Source: Thauera carbonicopians (lineage in GTDB: Bacteria; Pseudomonadota; Gammaproteobacteria; Burkholderiales; Rhodocyclaceae). Taken from it: a DNA stretch of 64,000 bases. The number at the start of each line of letters is the position of its first letter. Positions within the stretch are counted from its first letter, which is position 1. The translations under genes were made by a program, and so were the position numbers. The notes below the pieces were generated by a model, which saw nothing but the letters and a program-made list of their open reading frames with translations, had not been told where the DNA came from and did not search any database. Location: NCBI RefSeq assembly GCF_025699485.1, contig NZ_JANUXN010000006.1, positions 1-64,000 on the forward strand, in the 5' to 3' direction. This document shows, in pieces, positions 1-7,323 of the stretch.

Positions 1-183
1 GAGCTTCTTGTCGACAATCAGATGGAGCAGATAGGCCTGCAACTCGGCCATGCTCAGTTGATCGGGCCGGCGGCGGTAGTACTTGGCCAGCGAGCGCACG
101 CAGAGCAGGTAGGCTTCACGGGTGCGCTCGGCGAATCCGCGCAGCACCATCGCGTCATCCATTCGTTGGCGAAGTGGCGACAT
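1..183 (-). CDS. Tyrosine recombinase/integrase, N-terminal fragment (runs off window)
   Basis: Sixty-one codons are visible from an ATG at 183, reading out of the window at position 1. The N-terminus (MSPLRQRMDDAMVLRGFAER) and the following TREAYL and AKYYRRRPDQLS stretches match the SAM-like core-binding domain of phage-type integrases. I know this form from recombinases that travel with IS91-family transposases. No catalytic residues are in view because that domain lies outside. A perfect palindrome, CGGGAA-CA-TTCCCG at 201-214, sits just upstream and could be an operator. The family call rests on the N-terminal domain only; a transposase partner would lie further left. Confidence 0.6.
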   Translation of the reverse strand, partial: MSPLRQRMDDAMVLRGFAERTREAYLLCVRSLAKYYRRRPDQLSMAELQAYLLHLIVDKKL

Positions 184-345
184 GACGTTCTCCTCGTGAC
201 CGGGAACATTCCCGATAGCGAGGATGGCACTGCATGCCGGCGACTTCCCGGCGCCACGCCCGATCAGCGCCGCTGCCCAACCCAAATGGGCAACGCGGTG
301 GAAGCTTGTGCCACCACCGCGTCAGCGGTTTAGTTCAACAGTGTA

Positions 346-677
346 GTAGACGGAACGGGCTGGTGGAGGAGTAGACGGAATCCACATATTGCCCGCCCCA
401 AATTATTTGTTTAGCATTTACGCCTACAACTTCCAACTGCATCGGCGATGACGTTAGTCCAGGCCCATGACCTTGTCAAACCACTCCGACACGGTAGCCC
501 GCTTCTGGCATAAGTACCGGTTTTCACTCGCCGAATCCGGTGTGAAACCGGCGGCGCTGCAGTGGTACGCCCGCCACGCCGCGGCCTACGTCAAGGCCGC
601 TGACGGCCAGCGGTTTGCCACTCACTCGGCAGCCACAGTGGAGCCCTGTCTGGGAGAGTTGGACTGAGTAGACAGAA
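346..677. repeat. Three copies of a GTAGACRGAA motif
   Basis: The ten-base motif occurs at 346-355 (GTAGACGGAA), 371-380 (GTAGACGGAA, 25 bp later) and 668-677 (GTAGACAGAA). The third copy sits exactly where the integrase fossil is broken by its in-frame stop. The motifs may be remnants of a mobile-element end or recombination site; their function is unknown. Apart from these motifs and the palindrome at 201-214, I see nothing else organised in 300-466. Confidence 0.4.
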
Positions 678-715
678 TGCTGGCGTGGCAGTTTGGACAG
701 GCGGTGGATGCGGTG
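467..715 (+). pseudogene. Degenerate integron-integrase-like tyrosine recombinase
   Basis: From an ATG at 467 the frame reads an integron-integrase-type N-terminus: a VARFWHKYRFSLAESGVKP segment followed by QWYARHAAAYVKA. It stops at a TGA at 665. The same frame continues past the stop with MLAWQFGQAVDAV (677-715), which matches the next expected conserved block of these integrases (WQFRQAVDA). After that the similarity ends. The gene is therefore broken by an in-frame stop and then truncated, with no catalytic domain left. A second unrelated-looking scrap (LVDKASDGKLLFPYQDVKVQ) lies in another frame at about 718-809; I cannot place it. Confidence 0.5.
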
Positions 716-847
716 CGGCCTGGTGGACAAGGCCAGCGACGGCAAGCTGCTGTTTCCATACCAGGATGTGAAAGTGCAGTTCGAGTTGCATGCGAAGGCA
801 GCGTGATGCTGCGCAATTCGCCGACCTGTCGTGACGTCAAAAGTGCT

Positions 848-870
848 GGACTCCCACTTTTGCGGGAGTG
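848..870. repeat. dRS3-like small inverted repeat
   Basis: GGACTCCC (848-855) and GGGAGTG (864-870) form a hairpin with ACTCCC/GGGAGT arms around an eight-base loop, in the context CTGGACTCCCnnnnnnGCGGGAGTGACG. This resembles the dispersed ATTCCC-N8-GGGAAT elements of betaproteobacteria (dRS3 in Neisseria), with one symmetric base change. It lies just past the end of the SMC gene and might also help end that transcript. Confidence 0.4.
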
Positions 871-917
871 ACGAACGAAAACCGACTTGTTCAGAGCTTC
901 TCTGGATGGCGGCGCAT

Positions 918-3707
918 CTACACCGCCCGTTGCAACACTCCGATCGCCGGCGCCCAATCATCCCCCGGCTGCTTCTTGCGCGTCACCAGCGTCAGTTGCG
1001 CTGGCGCAAACACATTGGCGTTGTGCGTCACCGGCGTGGTGATCAGATATTGCGCCCGTGTGGCCCGCAGGAAGGTACCGACGCGGTCGATGTTGGCGAT
1101 GTCGAGGTGGGCGAAAGGTTCGTCGATGAAAACGAAGCCGCCGGGGCGGGCTTCGTCCATCAGCAGGCCGATCAGCAGGATCAGCGATTTCATCACCTGC
1201 TGGCCGCCGGAGGCTTCGCCGTCGTTGAGGCCGACGGCTCCCTTGCGGTCGAAGTCGAAGCGCACTTCCAGGCCGGCCTGGGCCAGCGACAGGTCGTCGT
1301 TGTCAAGGTGTGGGGTGGGGCAGTCGACGCTGACGTTGGCGAGTTCGCCGAGTGCTTTCAGGTTCTTGGCGTACTGGCGCACGGTGGCGCGCAGCTTGGC
1401 GATGTAGGCGGCGCGGGCGTTGTCGGTGTGGCGGCGGGCGGTGGCGCAGTAGCCCTGGCGGTCGAGGTAGTCGCGTTCGCGCAGGGCGACGTCGGCGGCG
1501 AGGCGGTCGCGGACGACGAGCACGGCGGAGTCGGTGATCCAGTCGCCTTCGTCGAGGCGGCGGCGCAGGCGCTCGAGCTCGGCGCGGGCGCCGCGGGCGT
1601 CGCCGTAGCGCTCGGCGAGCAGGGCGAGTTCGCCGCTGTCGAGCCAGTGCGGCGGCATGCCGCGCCGGCGGCGGCGCAGGCTGAGGATGCGTTCGGCCTG
1701 GGCGTGGCGGCGCGGGCCGTGGTCGCGGGCGATGTCGGCCAGGCGCTGGTCGATGGCCTTGAGCGCACTTTGACGGTGGGAAAGCTCGATCTGAATGCCG
1801 TTGAGCTTTTCGTTCAGGGCGTCGAGCGTGCCGCGCATGTCGGCGCGTTCGGTGATCGCGGCGGTCAGTGTCTTGCGCGCCTGCGGCAGTTCGGTTTCGG
1901 CGGCGGCGTAGATTTCGGCCTTGGCGGCGAGCAGTTGCGCCGATTGCAGGCCGAGCATGCACTGGCGCAGCGCGGTGACGCGCTCGGTGGTTTCGTCCAG
2001 CTTGGGGCGCAGGGCGTGCAGTTGCTTGTCGAGCGCGGTGATTTCGTCCTGCAGCGCGGCAAGGCGCGACTGGCGGGCGAGTTCGCCGAAGTGGAATTCC
2101 TGCGGCCGGCCGAGGTGGCGGGCGCCGCGGCGTTCGCGGTGGTAGCCGTCGCGGGTGATCCATTCCTGTTCGCGCGGCAGGTCGCGGGCGGCGTCGGCGT
2201 CTTCGACGCGGCGGATGCGGTTGAGCAGGTCGCTGAGCCAGCGCGGCACCGGGGCGTCGAATTCGACCACTTCGGCCAGGCTCATCGACCGCGGCGGCGG
2301 TGCGGTTTCGCGCTCGGGGACGATGAAGTGGCGGAAGCGTTCGCGCTCGCCCAGCGCCCAGGCGGCGTGGCGGTCGGCTTCGCGTTCGAGCAGGATCAGG
2401 TGGCGGTAGGGCCGCAGGATGGCTTCGAGCGCGGCTTGCCAGGCCGGGTCGGTGACTTCGACCACTTCGGCCAGGCTGCGGTGGGCGATGCCTTCGGCGC
2501 TGAGGCGGACGCGGAAGCGGGAGACTTCGGCGTCGCCCGGCGGGCCGCCGCGGTTGCGCTCGTGGCGCAGGGTTTCGGTCTTTTCCTCGAAGGCGGCGAC
2601 GAGTTCGCGTTCCCTGGTGCGCAGGCGGGTGCGGGCAGCGTCGGCTTCTTCGTGTTCCTTTTCCAGTGCGACTGCGTCGGCACCGTGTTCGCTGGCAAGC
2701 TGGGCGCGCAGGGTGTCGCGCTCGGCGAGCAGCTTTTCCAGGTCGCGCACGCGGTCGTGGGCGGCGAGGTAGGCTTGTTCGGTGCTCGTGTCGCTGTCCT
2801 TCAGTCGGGCGCGTTCGGCCTTGCCGGTCTCCTGTTCGGCCAGCACGGTTTCGAGCCGCAGGCGGGCGTCGCGCTGTTCGGCGAGCTTGTCGCTGCGTTC
2901 GAGATTGACGCGGCGCAGGGCTTCGTGCTCGGTGGCGATGTCGCGTGCGAGTTCGGCCACTTCCAGGCGCGGCACGATCTCGGCCTGCAGGGCCTGGGCT
3001 TCGTCGGCGAGCTGCTTCCATTCGAGGAAGCGGTTGGCTTCGGCCTTCTTTTCCTCGGCCTGGGTCTTCAGGCGGTCGAGGTCGATGCCGAGTTCGTCGA
3101 GCTCGCGTTCGGCGGATTTCTGCTCCTCGCGCGCGGCCTGGTAGTTGTCCAGCACTTCCTTGTCACCGAAGACGTCGAAGACGAGTTCCAGCAGCGCCTT
3201 GGGCGAGTATTCGCACAGCTTGTCGGTGTCGCCCTGTTCCAGCGCTAGCACCTTGGTGATCGCCGGCGTCAGGCCGCCCCAGGCGAGGCGGTGCTGGTAG
3301 TCGCGCAGGCCGATCCAGTCGTTGCTGGCTTCCAGCGCCTCGATGTCCTGGTTGCCGTCGATGATGGTGTAGTCGCGGATCCAGTCGCCGCCGGCCTTGC
3401 GGATGCGGCAGGCGAGGGTGACTTCGTCCGACAGGCAGGGGAAGAAGGGGCGCTTGCCGCTGCTGCCCGGCAGGTTGGCGACGATGGCGCGGATCCAGGC
3501 AAAGCTGCGATCGGCGCGGCGCACGTAGCGGCGGAAGTCGCGCTTGCCCGAGCAGCGCAGCGCGAACAGCGTGCGCAGGGCGTCGAGCAGCGTGGTCTTG
3601 CCCGAGCCGTTGGGGCCGACGATGGTGATGATCTGGGCGTCCAGCGGCAGCGAGAAGCGGCGCCAGAAGTCCCAGTGGACGAGTTCCAGGGTCTTGATGT
3701 GAAACAT
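918..3707 (-). CDS. SMC-family ATPase (condensin MksB/SMC-like)
   Basis: A 929-residue protein with a split ABC ATPase head and a long middle. Walker A (GPNGSGKT) is at residues 31-38, the signature (ASGGQQ) near 832-837 and Walker B (FVFIDEPF) near 858-865. Long charged coiled-coil arms flank a hinge-like globular section around residues 375-580. The stretch after Walker A (VLALEQGDTDKLCEYSPKAL) resembles the SMC block that reads QGqvdeil-skP. The size fits MksB-type condensins. ATG 3707 is chosen because the family N-terminus MFHIKTLELVHW starts there; the 56 codons upstream look non-coding. The likely partners (5312-6013, 6025-7323) lie on the same strand but are separated by two plus-strand genes. 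A Rad50-like repair role is possible, though no zinc hook was seen. Confidence 0.7.
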   Translation of the reverse strand: MFHIKTLELVHWDFWRRFSLPLDAQIITIVGPNGSGKTTLLDALRTLFALRCSGKRDFRRYVRRADRSFAWIRAIVANLPGSSGKRPFFPCLSDEVTLACRIRKAGGDWIRDYTIIDGNQDIEALEASNDWIGLRDYQHRLAWGGLTPAITKVLALEQGDTDKLCEYSPKALLELVFDVFGDKEVLDNYQAAREEQKSAERELDELGIDLDRLKTQAEEKKAEANRFLEWKQLADEAQALQAEIVPRLEVAELARDIATEHEALRRVNLERSDKLAEQRDARLRLETVLAEQETGKAERARLKDSDTSTEQAYLAAHDRVRDLEKLLAERDTLRAQLASEHGADAVALEKEHEEADAARTRLRTRERELVAAFEEKTETLRHERNRGGPPGDAEVSRFRVRLSAEGIAHRSLAEVVEVTDPAWQAALEAILRPYRHLILLEREADRHAAWALGERERFRHFIVPERETAPPPRSMSLAEVVEFDAPVPRWLSDLLNRIRRVEDADAARDLPREQEWITRDGYHRERRGARHLGRPQEFHFGELARQSRLAALQDEITALDKQLHALRPKLDETTERVTALRQCMLGLQSAQLLAAKAEIYAAAETELPQARKTLTAAITERADMRGTLDALNEKLNGIQIELSHRQSALKAIDQRLADIARDHGPRRHAQAERILSLRRRRRGMPPHWLDSGELALLAERYGDARGARAELERLRRRLDEGDWITDSAVLVVRDRLAADVALRERDYLDRQGYCATARRHTDNARAAYIAKLRATVRQYAKNLKALGELANVSVDCPTPHLDNDDLSLAQAGLEVRFDFDRKGAVGLNDGEASGGQQVMKSLILLIGLLMDEARPGGFVFIDEPFAHLDIANIDRVGTFLRATRAQYLITTPVTHNANVFAPAQLTLVTRKKQPGDDWAPAIGVLQRAV

Positions 3708-3928
3708 GTTGGATGTTCGGCCGAAAGGGTTTGCGGCCCGGCAGGGGATGGCGCGGGCAGGATGCGAGGCGGGGAGTGTAGCGGTGGCCTTGGGTGGCGG
3801 CAAATGCAGCGGCCATGCCGGAAGCTGCACTGAGATGGTGCGGGGCGCGAAATGAGCTGCATCAATGCCGTGCATGGCCGGCTCCGCAACACTGGGTGCC
3901 CGTGTATCGCTCCACAGAGGCAGATCCG

Positions 3929-4549
3929 ATGAGCTTTCCCGAATTCTTCCAGCGCGTGCCGCGCATCCGTGTACATGACCCCCTGGCCGATTTCCTCGGT
4001 GCCGCCGAAGGTGGCGTGCTCGATTACGGCTACGAGGATGCCGTGAAACTGGCCGGGCATTCCTGCCCGACGGTGGCGTCGGCCTATGTGTTGGCCTGCC
4101 GTTCGATGAGCCTGCTTTACCCGGATGGCTTGTCCGAACGCGGCGGCGTCCGTGTCGATTTCGCCGAGCCGCTGGAGCAGGGCGTGACCGGCGTCATCGC
4201 CAGTGTGCTGACCTTGATCACCGGTGCCACGCAGCAGGGCGGTTTCAAGGGCATCGCCGGCCGTTTCGTACGCCGCGGGCTGCAGCGTTTCGAGGCCGAC
4301 GCGCCGCTCGGTTTGCGGCTGACGCGCATCGATAGCGGTGCCTTCGTCGATGCCGCGTCGGATCTTTCGCAGGTGCCGGCCGAGGCCGAGACGTCGGCGC
4401 TGATGGGGAAGTGCCTGCATGGCGAGGCGACTGACGACGAGCGCCGCCGCTTCGGCCGGTTGTGGCAGCAACGGGTGGAACGCATTTTGCTGGACTGCTG
4501 GGATGACGACGCGGTGTTCCAGTTCCGCGTTTCCCCGACACCCGGATAA
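3929..4549 (+). CDS. FmdE-domain protein
   Basis: A 206-residue protein related to the FmdE (formylmethanofuran dehydrogenase subunit E) domain. The conserved AGHSCPTVASAYVLA stretch near residues 47-61 carries the His and Cys expected to bind metal. No C-terminal zinc finger is present, as in many short bacterial versions. The substrate is unknown; the name does not imply methanogenesis. It begins at ATG 3929 and is followed after 20 bases by a glutamine amidotransferase, so the two probably share a transcript. Both lie in opposite orientation to the flanking SMC-type genes. Confidence 0.6.
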   Translation: MSFPEFFQRVPRIRVHDPLADFLGAAEGGVLDYGYEDAVKLAGHSCPTVASAYVLACRSMSLLYPDGLSERGGVRVDFAEPLEQGVTGVIASVLTLITGATQQGGFKGIAGRFVRRGLQRFEADAPLGLRLTRIDSGAFVDAASDLSQVPAEAETSALMGKCLHGEATDDERRRFGRLWQQRVERILLDCWDDDAVFQFRVSPTPG

Positions 4550-4569
4550 GAAGAGCGGACTTCCGACCC

Positions 4570-5271
4570 ATGTACGCACACATCCTGCAGCACGTCGCTT
4601 TCGAGGGGCCGGGCAGCATCGGCCCCTGGTTGGAAAACGCCGGCTACGACATCGGCACTACCCATTTCTTCGAGCAGAGTGTGCTGCTGCCCGAACCCGA
4701 GTCGGTCGATCTGCTGATGGTGATGGGTGGGCCGATGAGCGTCAACGACGAGGCCGAGCTGCCGTGGCTGGTGGCGGAAAAGCGTTTCATTGCCGAAGTC
4801 ATCCGTCTCGGCAGGCCGGTGCTGGGTGTGTGCCTGGGGGCTCAACTGATCGCTTGCGCGCTGGGTGGACAGGTGTTTGCCAACCGCGAGCGTGAGATCG
4901 GCTGGTTTCCGGTCGAGGCGGTGGTGCAGGACGACTTGATGCCGTTCCGCTTCCCGTCGGCAGTCGAGGTCTTCCACTGGCACGGCGAGACCTTCAGCCT
5001 GCCGGCCGGGGCTGCCCATCTCGCACGCAGCACGGCTTGCGACAATCAGGCTTTCCAGTTCGGCAAGGCAGTGATCGGGCTGCAGTTCCACCTGGAGACC
5101 ACGCCCGAGTCGGCGCGGCAGATCGTCGAGCATTGCCGGGATGAGCTGCAGCCTGCAGCCTGGGTGCAATCCGAAGCCGGGATCCTGGCTGCGGATGAAA
5201 GCAAATACGCCGCGATCAACGGCCTGATGGCCGAGCTGCTTGCCTACCTGCATGCGGCCGGTGGCCGCTGA
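4570..5271 (+). CDS. Class I glutamine amidotransferase (GMP synthase GATase-like)
   Basis: A 233-residue single-domain glutaminase of the GuaA N-terminal type. The nucleophile elbow GVCLGAQ puts the catalytic Cys at residue 88, and the GLQFHLETTPE stretch supplies the catalytic His and Glu. The oxyanion-type motif MVMGGPMS is near residues 50-57. No synthetase domain follows, so it is a stand-alone enzyme that would transfer glutamine ammonia to an unknown acceptor, or act as a gamma-glutamyl hydrolase. It is probably co-transcribed with the FmdE-domain gene upstream. Confidence 0.8.
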   Translation: MYAHILQHVAFEGPGSIGPWLENAGYDIGTTHFFEQSVLLPEPESVDLLMVMGGPMSVNDEAELPWLVAEKRFIAEVIRLGRPVLGVCLGAQLIACALGGQVFANREREIGWFPVEAVVQDDLMPFRFPSAVEVFHWHGETFSLPAGAAHLARSTACDNQAFQFGKAVIGLQFHLETTPESARQIVEHCRDELQPAAWVQSEAGILAADESKYAAINGLMAELLAYLHAAGGR

Positions 5272-5311
5272 AGCGGAACAGGGAGAATAGGTTTGATCAG
5301 CCGTCCAGGTT

Positions 5312-6013
5312 TCAGCCGGCAGTGACGGCTTCGTCGTCGGCGGCTGTCTCGTCATCGTCGGCCGCCTCCGCGCCCGGCAGGTGGTGGCCGGTCGCGGCCA
5401 GCACTTCGCCCAGCGTGCCGTGGATGATGCGGTCGGCCATCACGCGGTAGTCGAGCGCGACGTCGAGCAGCGGCCCTTCGCCGATGATGCCGGCGCGGCG
5501 CTCGATGAAGCCCAGGCGGTTCAGCTTGCCGAGCGCGATCGCCATGCGCGTCTTGCCGCCGAGGCGGGGGCCGAAGTCGGCCAGCAGCGAGCTTTCGGCC
5601 AGGCTGCCGGAAACGGCCTCGCCGTGGGCGACCGGTTTGTCGCCGCCGAACATGTCGGCCTGGCCGTCGTCGACGAGTTCGCGCCGCGTGACCTGGCGCT
5701 CGCGCTTGGGCAGCACGATCAGCGACCAGATCACCACCAGCAGTGCGATCTCGTCGCGCGTCAGGCCCAGGTTGCTGGCGGCGTATTCGCGGCCGGCGCC
5801 GAACACCGGTTCGGCCATGTCGGCCTGCAGCGCGACGCCGACATGGGCGGCGTAGGGGTTGTCGAGCAGTTGCAGGCCGACGTCGGCCAGGCGGCGGTCG
5901 AGTTCGAGACGAAAGCTCTCATCGACCAGTGCTCGCCGCACCATGCGGTCACTGCGCGGCAGCCAGCGCTGGGCGAGCAGGCGGGCGGTGAGCGTCTTCA
6001 GTTCGTGTTCCAT
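5312..6013 (-). CDS. Putative MksE/KITE-like condensin subunit
   Basis: A 233-residue, mostly helical protein with an acidic tail (AEAADDDETAADDEAV). I do not recognise a diagnostic motif. The call rests on size (MksE proteins are about this long), on its position 11 bases after a 432-residue partner on the same strand, and on an SMC ATPase next on that strand. Central sequence around TRDEIALLVVIWSLIVLPKR and a later MAIALGKLNRLGFIERR look like winged-helix segments, which KITE subunits contain. The function is inferred: a bridge between kleisin and SMC head. It could be an unrelated conserved hypothetical. Confidence 0.45.
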   Translation of the reverse strand: MEHELKTLTARLLAQRWLPRSDRMVRRALVDESFRLELDRRLADVGLQLLDNPYAAHVGVALQADMAEPVFGAGREYAASNLGLTRDEIALLVVIWSLIVLPKRERQVTRRELVDDGQADMFGGDKPVAHGEAVSGSLAESSLLADFGPRLGGKTRMAIALGKLNRLGFIERRAGIIGEGPLLDVALDYRVMADRIIHGTLGEVLAATGHHLPGAEAADDDETAADDEAVTAG

Positions 6014-6024
6014 GGGCGCACCGT

Positions 6025-7323
6025 TCAGGAGTGGGCGAGTGGGGCTGCCGGGGCAGGGGCGTGCGGCAGGCGCGGGCTGACTTCGCCGCTGTTGATGGCG
6101 GCGATCTCGTCTTCGCCGACTGCGACCAGTTCGTCGCCGAAATGGACGTCCAGCGGCAGACGCATGAAGGCACCGACCGGCCCGTCGACCGGGCTGGCGT
6201 GTTCACCGTCGGCCAGCAGCGCGAGCAGCGACAGGCGGTAGCTGGCCGGCGCGAAGCCGCCGCCGGCGACGACCTGGTGCAGCGGCTGCGCGCCGGGCAG
6301 GGCGTCGAGGCGATGGGTGAAGTGCTCCAGCATCGCCAGGTCTTCGGTCTCGGGCGCGGCGTCGACCGGCGCGGCATCGGGCGGTGGCAGCGTGGCGTCT
6401 GCCGTGTTCTGCGCAGCCTCGCCGCCGAGCGCGCTTTCGGCGCGGTCCAGCAGTTCGTGTCCGCCAGCCAGCAGCGGCAGTTCGGGCACTGCAGCAATGC
6501 AGCCGCTGGCGAGCCCGGCCAGCGTGCTGCTGTCCAGCCGGCGCAGCCAGGCGGCGACGTCGGACGAGGAGATGCCGGAGCCGCCCAGCGTCACGCGCTG
6601 GGCTTCGATCTTGTTCAGCGCGCGCTGGAAGGATGCGTCCACGCGGGCGAGCCGCGACTGCGCCAGGCCGATGCGCTGGGCGACGCGGGCGAGTTCGAAA
6701 TCGGCATCCGGCTCGGCTAGCAGCTTGTTGAGGATGTCGGTGCCGCGCTCCAGCCAGCGGCCGTTGGCCGACAGCCGGCGGCGGGCGTCGAGGATGCGGA
6801 ACTCGGAGCCGGAGGCGATCGCTTCCTCGAAGTGCCAGGTGAGATCGGTGAGCTTGGACAGCAGGTGGCCGAGCGATTCGGCGGTGACGCCGCCGACAGC
6901 CTGCAGGCCGGCCAGTTGCGCGGTGAGAAAGCCCAGCTCGGCGTCTTCCTCGTCGCCGAAGCGCAGCAGCATGGCCAGTGCCGCCACCGCGTTGCGGCCG
7001 ATGTCCGACAGCGCGTACTGGCCGTCCTCGCCGATGCTCAGCAGGGCGTTGTCGCGCAGGCGCTTCAGCACCGTCTCGAGCTTCACTGGGTCGAGATAGG
7101 CGAAGCGCGCGCGCAGCGCCTCGGGCGACCAGCGCGGCACTTCGGCTTCCTGGCCGATCTCGCGCAGCACCAGCAGGCGCATCAGCACTTCGGCTTCGGT
7201 GCCGCGGAACAGCGTGATGAAGGCGTCGAGCAGTGGCCGCGCCGAGGCCAGCGCCGCCAGTTCGGGCACTTCGCCGGCGTCGACGCCGGGAGCGAGGAAG
7301 TCGGATAGGAAGGGATCGGTCAT
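6025..7323 (-). CDS. Putative MksF/kleisin-like condensin subunit
   Basis: A 432-residue protein starting at ATG 7323. The N-terminal half contains a winged-helix-like stretch (around LKRLRDNALLSIGEDGQYAL) and long helices; the C-terminus is proline/alanine-rich and ends in a domain with MRLPLDVHFGDELVA. Length and gene order (long, then short, then SMC) fit the MksF-MksE-MksB order, but I cannot point to a defining kleisin motif. The stop is 11 bases from the next gene's start, so the two are one transcript. Upstream coding potential to 7515 is not supported because it runs through a repeat. Confidence 0.45.
   Translation of the reverse strand: MTDPFLSDFLAPGVDAGEVPELAALASARPLLDAFITLFRGTEAEVLMRLLVLREIGQEAEVPRWSPEALRARFAYLDPVKLETVLKRLRDNALLSIGEDGQYALSDIGRNAVAALAMLLRFGDEEDAELGFLTAQLAGLQAVGGVTAESLGHLLSKLTDLTWHFEEAIASGSEFRILDARRRLSANGRWLERGTDILNKLLAEPDADFELARVAQRIGLAQSRLARVDASFQRALNKIEAQRVTLGGSGISSSDVAAWLRRLDSSTLAGLASGCIAAVPELPLLAGGHELLDRAESALGGEAAQNTADATLPPPDAAPVDAAPETEDLAMLEHFTHRLDALPGAQPLHQVVAGGGFAPASYRLSLLALLADGEHASPVDGPVGAFMRLPLDVHFGDELVAVGEDEIAAINSGEVSPRLPHAPAPAAPLAHS

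What the first reader, a model, noticed from the sequence alone, without database searches (positions are those of the whole stretch)
918..7323. Possible divided MksBEF-like condensin locus
An SMC-type ATPase of 929 residues, a 233-residue and a 432-residue helical protein lie in one strand with sizes and order like MksF-MksE-MksB, but a plus-strand FmdE/amidotransferase pair splits the ATPase off. No JetD/MksG nuclease is present, so this would be a chromosome-organising form rather than the anti-plasmid Wadjet. The small partners have no diagnostic motif, so this could also be an unnamed SMC complex.
Basis: inference. Interest (0 to 1): 0.6.

Follow-up and report, generated by a model that had tools for sequence, protein, structure and literature searches.

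The report
Divergent Wadjet-like SMC motor, nuclease broken
Three neighbouring genes encode what looks like a divergent DNA-looping machine related to the MksBEF and Wadjet complexes; some close relatives still carry the DNA-cutting nuclease that goes with it, but in this bacterium the nuclease gene is broken and lies on a different contig while the motor genes stay intact.

Summary
An SMC ATPase (918-3707), a 233-aa (5312-6013) and a 432-aa protein (6025-7323) lie on the minus strand, split by a plus-strand FmdE-like/amidotransferase pair. All 61 loci fetched for an SMC hit in more distant genomes keep the order 432-233-SMC on one strand. The inserted pair was seen only in loci of this genus.

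Profiles, predicted folds and a head-domain tree point to a sister lineage of JetC/MksB with a JetA/MukF-like kleisin and a JetB-like KITE; the SMC evidence is strong, that for the two small subunits moderate. Pfam, NCBIfam and PADLOC recognise neither.

The step from "no nuclease here" to "chromosome-organising form" fails for the family: 20 of 106 distinct loci have a JetD-like gene right after the SMC gene, including near relatives. This genome has only a broken copy, lacking about 180 residues in frame, at the end of another contig beside a transposase gene. Presence changes at least 10 times on the SMC tree, yet trios without the nuclease stay conserved. I read it as a Wadjet-like variant that repeatedly loses its nuclease while the motor survives. 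No function was tested.

The parts
6025..7323 (-). 432-aa kleisin-like subunit (JetA/MksF/MukF-like): N-terminal winged helix about 29-120, helical middle about 128-242, C-terminal helix and strand part about 320-417
   Evidence: hhalign versus JetA E 0.0066, 0 of 30 decoys reach it; AlphaFold pLDDT 75.5, pTM 0.47; Foldseek first hit MukF 9gm7_C, E 5e-3 but TM-score 0.19; VIA MukF 1t98_A Z 11.2, 192 aligned, rmsd 10.0, tied with a designed repeat protein at Z 11.4
5312..6013 (-). 233-aa KITE-like subunit (JetB-like, tandem winged helices)
   Evidence: hhalign versus JetB E 5e-4 over residues 3-175, 0 of 30 decoys; AlphaFold pLDDT 70.1, pTM 0.54; Foldseek first hit JetB 8as8_C, E 0.10; VIA first row JetB Z 9.7, 102 aligned, rmsd 4.1, tied with SarX at Z 9.2
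918..3707 (-). 929-aa SMC ATPase (JetC/MksB-like)
   Evidence: hhalign versus JetC E 2.1e-39 over residues 2-914; versus Smc best E 1.6e-22 over 398-588 only; head tree groups it with JetC, 99
3594..3617 (-). Walker A GPNGSGKT (residues 31-38)
1944..2516 (-). hinge region (about residues 398-588)
   Evidence: PF06470 just under cut-off; Smc hinge fragment 4rsj_A in a profile search; hhalign to JetC E 1.8e-15 and Smc E 1.5e-9
1197..1214 (-). ABC signature ASGGQQ (residues 832-837)
1119..1139 (-). Walker B GFVFIDE (residues 857-863), D-loop PFAHLD next to it
3794..4549 (+). inserted FmdE-like gene (assignment weak); separates the SMC gene; lineage-specific, not part of the system
   Evidence: PF02663 E 0.29
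4570..5271 (+). inserted class I glutamine amidotransferase gene; not part of the system
   Evidence: PF00117 E 3.4e-18
1..183 (-). N-terminal fragment of a phage-type integrase, cut by the contig end, in the stretch where near relatives have the JetD-like gene
   Evidence: PF13495 E 3.8e-13

Best explanation
The trio encodes one SMC complex of the MksBEF/Wadjet group, in a lineage whose two small subunits public family models do not recognise. Two 929-aa SMC chains would join at the hinge, the 432-aa kleisin would bridge their heads, and the 233-aa KITE would sit on the kleisin; ATP use by the heads would drive DNA loop extrusion (all inferred from JetABC and MukBEF, not tested). In part of the family a fourth gene, a JetD-like TOPRIM protein, follows the SMC gene; there it would cut small circular DNA that the motor has extruded (inferred). 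In this genome the nuclease gene is broken: an integrase fragment follows the SMC gene, and a JetD-like copy lacking about 180 residues sits at the end of another contig beside a transposase gene (shown). The loss is probably recent, since near relatives have the intact gene (inferred). The motor genes are intact, as in many relatives without the nuclease, so the complex most likely does useful work without cutting, such as folding DNA or restraining plasmids (inferred).
For: Order and strand kept in 61 of 61 SMC-led loci. SMC versus JetC E 2.1e-39 over nearly the full length; heads group with JetC, 99. KITE-JetB E 5e-4 and kleisin-JetA E 0.0066, 0 of 30 shuffled or reversed decoys each. Fold searches return MukF and JetB first. 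JetD-like family versus JetD E 4.4e-11 over 291 columns; a PADLOC JetD1 model matches 19 of 19 members; a glutamate and an aspartate of the TOPRIM kind are invariant in 19 of 19. JetD-like gene after the SMC gene in 20 of 106 distinct SMC sequences (22 of 124 loci, some of them one genome held twice), every one same strand, -31 to 848 nt away. In 349 genomes of the order it is found in 12 of 57 with the trio (one broken) and 1 of 292 without (Fisher p 1.4e-9, not corrected for kinship). Broken copy at G000:C6:1991-2677. Median dN/dS 0.215 (SMC), 0.272 (KITE), 0.252 (kleisin) among pairs without the nuclease, against 0.225, 0.313, 0.260 among the few pairs with it (6, 3 and 3 pairs).
Against: Small subunits: hhalign probabilities are low (31.7 for KITE-JetB, 5.8 for kleisin-JetA); the kleisin scores as well against a JetB winged helix (0.0059) as against JetA; KITE versus MukE (0.16) and kleisin versus MukF (0.24), each a single E. 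coli sequence, give nothing. No Foldseek hit reaches 0.001, TM-scores are about 0.2-0.3, and the VIA rows are tied with unrelated folds. No relevant PDB sequence matches either. No complex was modelled. The assembly is a draft of 48 contigs, and both remnants lie at contig ends, so the broken gene may be close to the trio in the real chromosome. Pairwise dN/dS includes branches from before nuclease loss. One JetD-like gene stands without a trio (G1034), and JetD-like distances follow SMC distances less well (0.78) than kleisin (0.98) or KITE (0.97) do, so gains by transfer are possible. No function was measured.
Confidence: 0.7

Rival explanations
1. An ordinary chromosome-organising MksBEF-like complex: the nuclease-free state is old, and the JetD-like gene was added several times by transfer in some lineages.
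For: 84 of 106 distinct loci show no JetD-like gene with at least 1,500 nt of downstream DNA, and no match was found in 45 of 57 trio genomes of the order. The SMC gene is in only 2 of 72,556 plasmid records, both cut, and the KITE in 0 of 50,697 phage records. JetD-like distances follow SMC distances less well than the partners' do (0.78 against 0.98 and 0.97).
Against: The JetD-like gene sits in the same place and strand in separate branches of the SMC tree, and its distances still correlate with SMC (0 of 2000 permutations). The broken copy of this genome and the scrambled remnant in L030 show that loss happens.
Confidence: 0.25
2. The motor still works in plasmid defence here with a nuclease in trans: JetD of the type I Wadjet locus of the same genome, or the truncated JetD-like protein, which keeps its catalytic-type residues.
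For: The genome holds a complete-looking JetABCD locus at C24. The 228-aa truncated frame is open and keeps VENRSAF, CDPDPDG and KGEQE.
Against: No JetD-like gene of this family was found in 45 of 57 trio genomes; whether those have another JetD was not checked. A passage of PMC10123090 points to the kleisin as the contact of MksG, and this kleisin is far from JetA. The truncated protein lacks about 180 residues.
Confidence: 0.15
3. A paralogue of Smc-ScpAB, or another SMC-like ATPase (RecN, Rad50 or Lamassu kind) with unrelated partners.
For: SMC_prok_B is the best NCBIfam row (E 1.8e-34, 118.8 bits against a cut-off of 567) and the hinge region matches Smc. In PADLOC, LmuB (3.9e-18) comes close behind the best JetC models (6.1e-26).
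Against: The near full-length match is to JetC (E 2.1e-39); heads group with JetC, 99. The genome has Smc and ScpA elsewhere. Kleisin versus one ScpA sequence E 0.49. ScpB was not tested.
Confidence: 0.07

Closest known systems
Wadjet type I (JetABCD), for example the JetABCD locus of this same genome (L208)
   Same: gene order kleisin-KITE-SMC-nuclease in the loci that have the nuclease; SMC matches JetC over nearly its whole length; KITE matches JetB; the fourth gene matches JetD
   Different: kleisin and KITE are not recognised by JetA, DUF4194 or MksE models; SMC shorter (929 aa against 1,122-1,231 in 17 JetC); nuclease often absent
MukBEF (E. coli)
   Same: kleisin-KITE-SMC gene order; first fold match of the kleisin model is MukF; no intact nuclease of this family here
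   Different: hinge region hardly matches MukB (E 0.0075 over 33 columns); SMC far shorter than MukB (1,486 aa); no sequence signal to MukE or MukF; coexists with Smc and ScpA
MksBEF(G), for example Corynebacterium glutamicum and Pseudomonas (operon order from PMC10123090 passages)
   Same: operon order mksF-E-B-G; nuclease with TOPRIM glutamate and aspartate
   Different: Pfam MksE does not match the KITE at E up to 1; no MksB or MksF protein of these species was compared directly

Membership tests
MksBEF/Wadjet (JetABC) group | SMC ATPase with hinge, Walker A/B and signature, related to JetC/MksB | tested here: met
   hhalign versus JetC E 2.1e-39; head tree 99; motifs
MksBEF/Wadjet (JetABC) group | kleisin subunit of JetA/MksF/MukF kind | tested here: inconclusive
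   JetA E 0.0066, 0 of 30 decoys; MukF first in Foldseek but with low TM-score; no Pfam JetA match; equal score to a JetB winged helix
MksBEF/Wadjet (JetABC) group | KITE subunit of JetB/MksE/MukE kind | tested here: inconclusive
   points to JetB: E 5e-4 over both domains, 0 of 30 decoys, best unrelated control 0.028, JetB first in both fold listings; but hhalign probability 31.7, VIA tied with MarR-type folds, no DUF4194 or MksE match
MksBEF/Wadjet (JetABC) group | three co-directional genes in the order kleisin-KITE-SMC | tested here: met
   61 of 61 loci; in the window an inserted pair interrupts it
Wadjet defence system (JetABCD) | intact JetD/MksG TOPRIM nuclease next to JetC | tested here: not met
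   for this genome: only a truncated copy of the family, on another contig; for the family: present in 20 of 106 distinct loci
Wadjet defence system (JetABCD) | lowers plasmid uptake or maintenance | not testable with these tools
   needs an experiment
Wadjet types I, II, III as named | small subunits recognised by the type-specific JetA and JetB models of PADLOC | tested here: not met
   no PADLOC family for either small protein at E up to 1; the SMC matches JetC1 models weakly (best 6.1e-26); 87 families matched it and only the best 25 were shown, so JetC2 or JetC3 matches are not excluded
Smc-ScpAB | Smc with ScpA and ScpB partners | tested here: inconclusive
   separate Smc and ScpA in the genome; kleisin versus ScpA E 0.49; ScpB not searched
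MukBEF | MukB-type SMC | tested here: inconclusive
   PF04310 15.1 bits against a cut-off of 23; hhalign matches mainly head parts

The most novel reading that the evidence does not exclude
This is a fourth Wadjet type with its own kleisin and KITE families, in which the nuclease is shed again and again while selection keeps the motor, so that an anti-plasmid machine turns into a nuclease-free DNA-folding complex. Thauera shows both states within one genus, and this genome shows the loss itself.
Probability: 0.38. Interest if true: 0.75.

Novelty: new variant of a known kind. Interest (0 to 1): 0.58.

Why it matters
[quoted passage not shown] Here one SMC lineage exists with and without its nuclease in the same genus, with the motor conserved in both. 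That makes the question testable: compare plasmid restriction and chromosome folding by closely related motors that differ in the nuclease. It also adds subunit families that annotation misses: in two Variovorax records the SMC halves are called 'AAA family ATPase' and 'ATP-binding protein' and a JetD-like protein 'hypothetical protein'.

Tried and rejected
Pfam, NCBIfam and PADLOC on both small proteins at E up to 1: one NCBIfam row at 0.27, otherwise nothing. Profile search of PDB sequences: KITE one chance row at E 0.17, kleisin none; JetD-like profile six rows at E 0.029-0.34, a kinesin-like protein first and topoisomerase VI A last, taken as chance. A second common downstream gene of about 390 aa (17 loci) was at first a nuclease candidate; its sequence reads as an RlmL-like RNA methyltransferase (recalled, not searched), so rejected. 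The weak hit G071/L105 of the 233-aa profile holds none of the three genes and was dropped. MukB in 140 class genomes: none at E 1e-30; E. coli MukB fell out of the head tree because my signature pattern did not find its motif. A first clustering of flanking frames was swamped by shadow frames. Whether these operons are already in the Wadjet survey of PMC7617805 (Data S1) could not be checked: supplements are not open here.

Searches for prior reports: MksBEF, condensin; Wadjet, SMC, kleisin, phylogen; Wadjet, type IV, JetD; Thauera, condensin; JetABCD, JetD, types; MksB, Azoarcus; no paper; Wadjet, nuclease, lost, MukBEF, evolution. I saw titles and abstract beginnings; none names this family or a fourth Wadjet type. 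The library is open-access only. Passages were seen of PMC10512200, PMC10586767, PMC7617805, PMC10123090, PMC12647877 and PMC12153180; no paper was read whole.

Rows set aside: one search kept 124 of 133 loci (9 without a full-length SMC frame); 22 had the JetD-like gene, 2 part of it (L175 is cut by a contig end; L030 is a scrambled remnant), 94 none within at least 1,500 nt, 6 could not be judged. Some of the 124 are one genome held in two collections; the tree used 106 distinct sequences (20 with, 84 without, 2 part). One of the 20, L027, has a stop inside the N-terminal part of the frame; 24 of 131 family rows, 17 JetC, 17 of 31 Smc; 19 of 20 JetD-like loci; 21 loci for SMC, 19 for KITE, 17 for kleisin. 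JetA from 16, JetC from 17, JetD from 12 of 20 loci, chosen by place and length. Genome searches score few candidates per genome (2 for), so absences may be misses; the 349 genomes were taken as one set because settings and listed handles agree, not checked one by one. On re-checking I lowered the main confidence from 0.72 to 0.70 and marked the KITE test inconclusive, because contig ends leave the place of the broken gene open and the fold rows are tied.
Full report
What is there. The three minus-strand genes are real, at the coordinates given. The SMC protein has the ATPase motifs and a hinge region. The plus-strand pair between the KITE-like and SMC genes is a local insertion: several loci of the genus carry it (for example L002-L005; L006 only the first gene), three others that I read have trmA in the same gap (name recalled from the translated frame), and in Azoarcus and Aromatoleum loci such as L014, L016, L021 and L022 the two genes are adjacent. 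Neither inserted gene was found in the 61 distant loci.

A unit of three genes. The SMC profile finds 7 of 397 genomes of the phylum and 57 of 349 of the order, in 29 of 149 genera; in the genus 25 of 28 other genomes have a match. Every locus fetched because of an SMC hit in distant genomes, 61 of 61, has the 432-aa and 233-aa genes upstream in the same order and strand (a 62nd, L105, came from a weak KITE-profile hit and has none). prfB, the neighbour in most Rhodocyclales loci, was seen in only 4 of these 61, so the trio keeps together in different settings. The KITE query finds nothing in 50,697 phage records; the SMC query finds 2 of 72,556 plasmid records, both Variovorax, each with half the gene beside IS1071.

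What the subunits are. SMC: profile match to 17 JetC proteins over residues 2-914, E 2.1e-39; to Smc the best local match is the hinge region, E 1.6e-22; to MukB mainly head parts. A head tree puts the family beside JetC, apart from Smc, support 99 (family monophyletic at 74, JetC at 100). Eight of the 17 JetC proteins were typed, all JetC1 first. KITE: E 5e-4 to JetB along both winged helices, the same as the known pair JetB-MukE. Kleisin: E 0.0066 to JetA, better than the known pair JetA-MukF (0.21), but 0.0059 to a JetB winged helix, so sequence alone is not decisive; neither protein shows a signal to the single MukE and MukF sequences (0.16, 0.24). Reversed or shuffled decoys do not reach the KITE-JetB or kleisin-JetA scores, 0 of 30 each; the best of six unrelated real controls is 0.028 (KITE against JetD). 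Predicted structures (pLDDT 75.5 and 70.1) searched against the PDB give MukF first for the kleisin (E 5e-3, TM-score 0.19) and JetB first for the KITE (E 0.10). In the second look MukF (Z 11.2) is tied with a designed repeat protein (Z 11.4), and the tool warns that helical models reach such values by chance; JetB (Z 9.7) is tied with a MarR-type protein (Z 9.2). The point is not the size of these scores but that each search put an SMC-complex subunit of the matching role first.

The nuclease. Behind the SMC gene of some loci lies a same-strand gene of about 400-430 aa. Its family matches JetD with E 4.4e-11 over 291 columns. One PADLOC JetD1 model matches 19 of 19 members; Pfam at E up to 1 gives DUF2399 in 12 and JetD_C in 7 of 19. 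A glutamate (EN) and an aspartate (CD) of the TOPRIM kind are invariant; mutation of E236 or D279 strongly impairs C. glutamicum MksG (PMC10123090, passages). On distinct SMC sequences it is present in 20 of 106, absent in 84, partial in 2; in 22 of 22 loci it is on the same strand, -31 to 848 nt away. A Variovorax plasmid carries one overlapping the end of the SMC frame, annotated 'hypothetical protein'. In the genus 4 of 20 fetched relatives have it; one of the other 16 has only 260 nt downstream.

This genome. Near relatives G018 and G022 (T. butanivorans and T. linaloolentis by equal contig lengths) have the gene 734 and 329 nt after the SMC gene. Here alignment to relatives, in the 60 rows printed, ends about the SMC stop codon, apart from a 337-734 stretch that matches Pseudothauera lacus elsewhere; 10 JetD-like queries find nothing in window 1-1000 (best E 0.097), and an integrase fragment reaches the contig end. 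On contig C6 at 1991-2677 sits a 228-aa JetD-like frame missing profile positions of about 87-266 in frame, next to a transposase-acetyltransferase frame. Both places are near contig ends, so whether they are apart in the chromosome is open. The genome also has Smc, ScpA and a complete-looking type I JetABCD locus.

Loss or gain. On the SMC tree the nuclease label needs 12 changes, at least 10 forced by well-supported branches (quick tree, with warnings about long branches). JetD-like distances correlate with SMC distances (0.78, 0 of 2000 permutations), less than kleisin (0.98) or KITE (0.97). I prefer an old association with repeated loss; some transfer is not excluded. In the order sample 12 of 57 trio genomes hold the gene (one broken) against 1 of 292 others; that one, G1034, stands next to a gene that reads as obgE (recalled). 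Trios without the nuclease have median dN/dS of 0.215-0.272, like the few pairs with it: the motor is still selected, with the caveat that pairwise values mix old and new branches.

How it works (inferred). By analogy with JetABC and MukBEF (PMC10512200, PMC12647877, PMC7617805; passages), two SMC chains, kleisin and KITE form a loop-extruding motor. With the nuclease it should cut fully extruded circles; without it, folding or restraining DNA is the simplest remaining task. PMC12647877 (November 2025) still counts three Wadjet types; the small subunits here match no PADLOC JetA or JetB model. PMC7617805 surveyed Wadjet operons with SMC proteins above 890 aa, some without MksG, so this family may already be listed there.

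Noticed in passing
G000:C24:16000-24472 (L208): The same genome carries a complete-looking type I Wadjet locus: JetA 506, JetB 223, JetC 1145 and a JetD-position gene of 391 aa.
   Followed up: partly
L291 5998-7485 and L292 5998-7392 (Variovorax plasmids): In two Variovorax plasmids the SMC gene is cut beside an IS1071 transposase gene, one record holding the N-terminal half and the other the C-terminal half; in L292 a JetD-like gene and then xseA and xseB follow.
   Followed up: partly
L289 7090-8280 (G1034): A JetD-like gene stands without any of the three SMC-complex genes in the fetched stretch, next to a gene that reads as obgE.
   Followed up: partly
L288 1361-1957: A frame joining a transposase HTH domain (PF01527) to a GNAT acetyltransferase domain, right before the broken JetD-like gene.
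   Followed up: partly
window 3794-5271; L278 3860-5002: The gap between the KITE-like and SMC genes is an insertion spot in the genus: an FmdE-like/amidotransferase pair in some genomes, trmA in others.
   Followed up: partly
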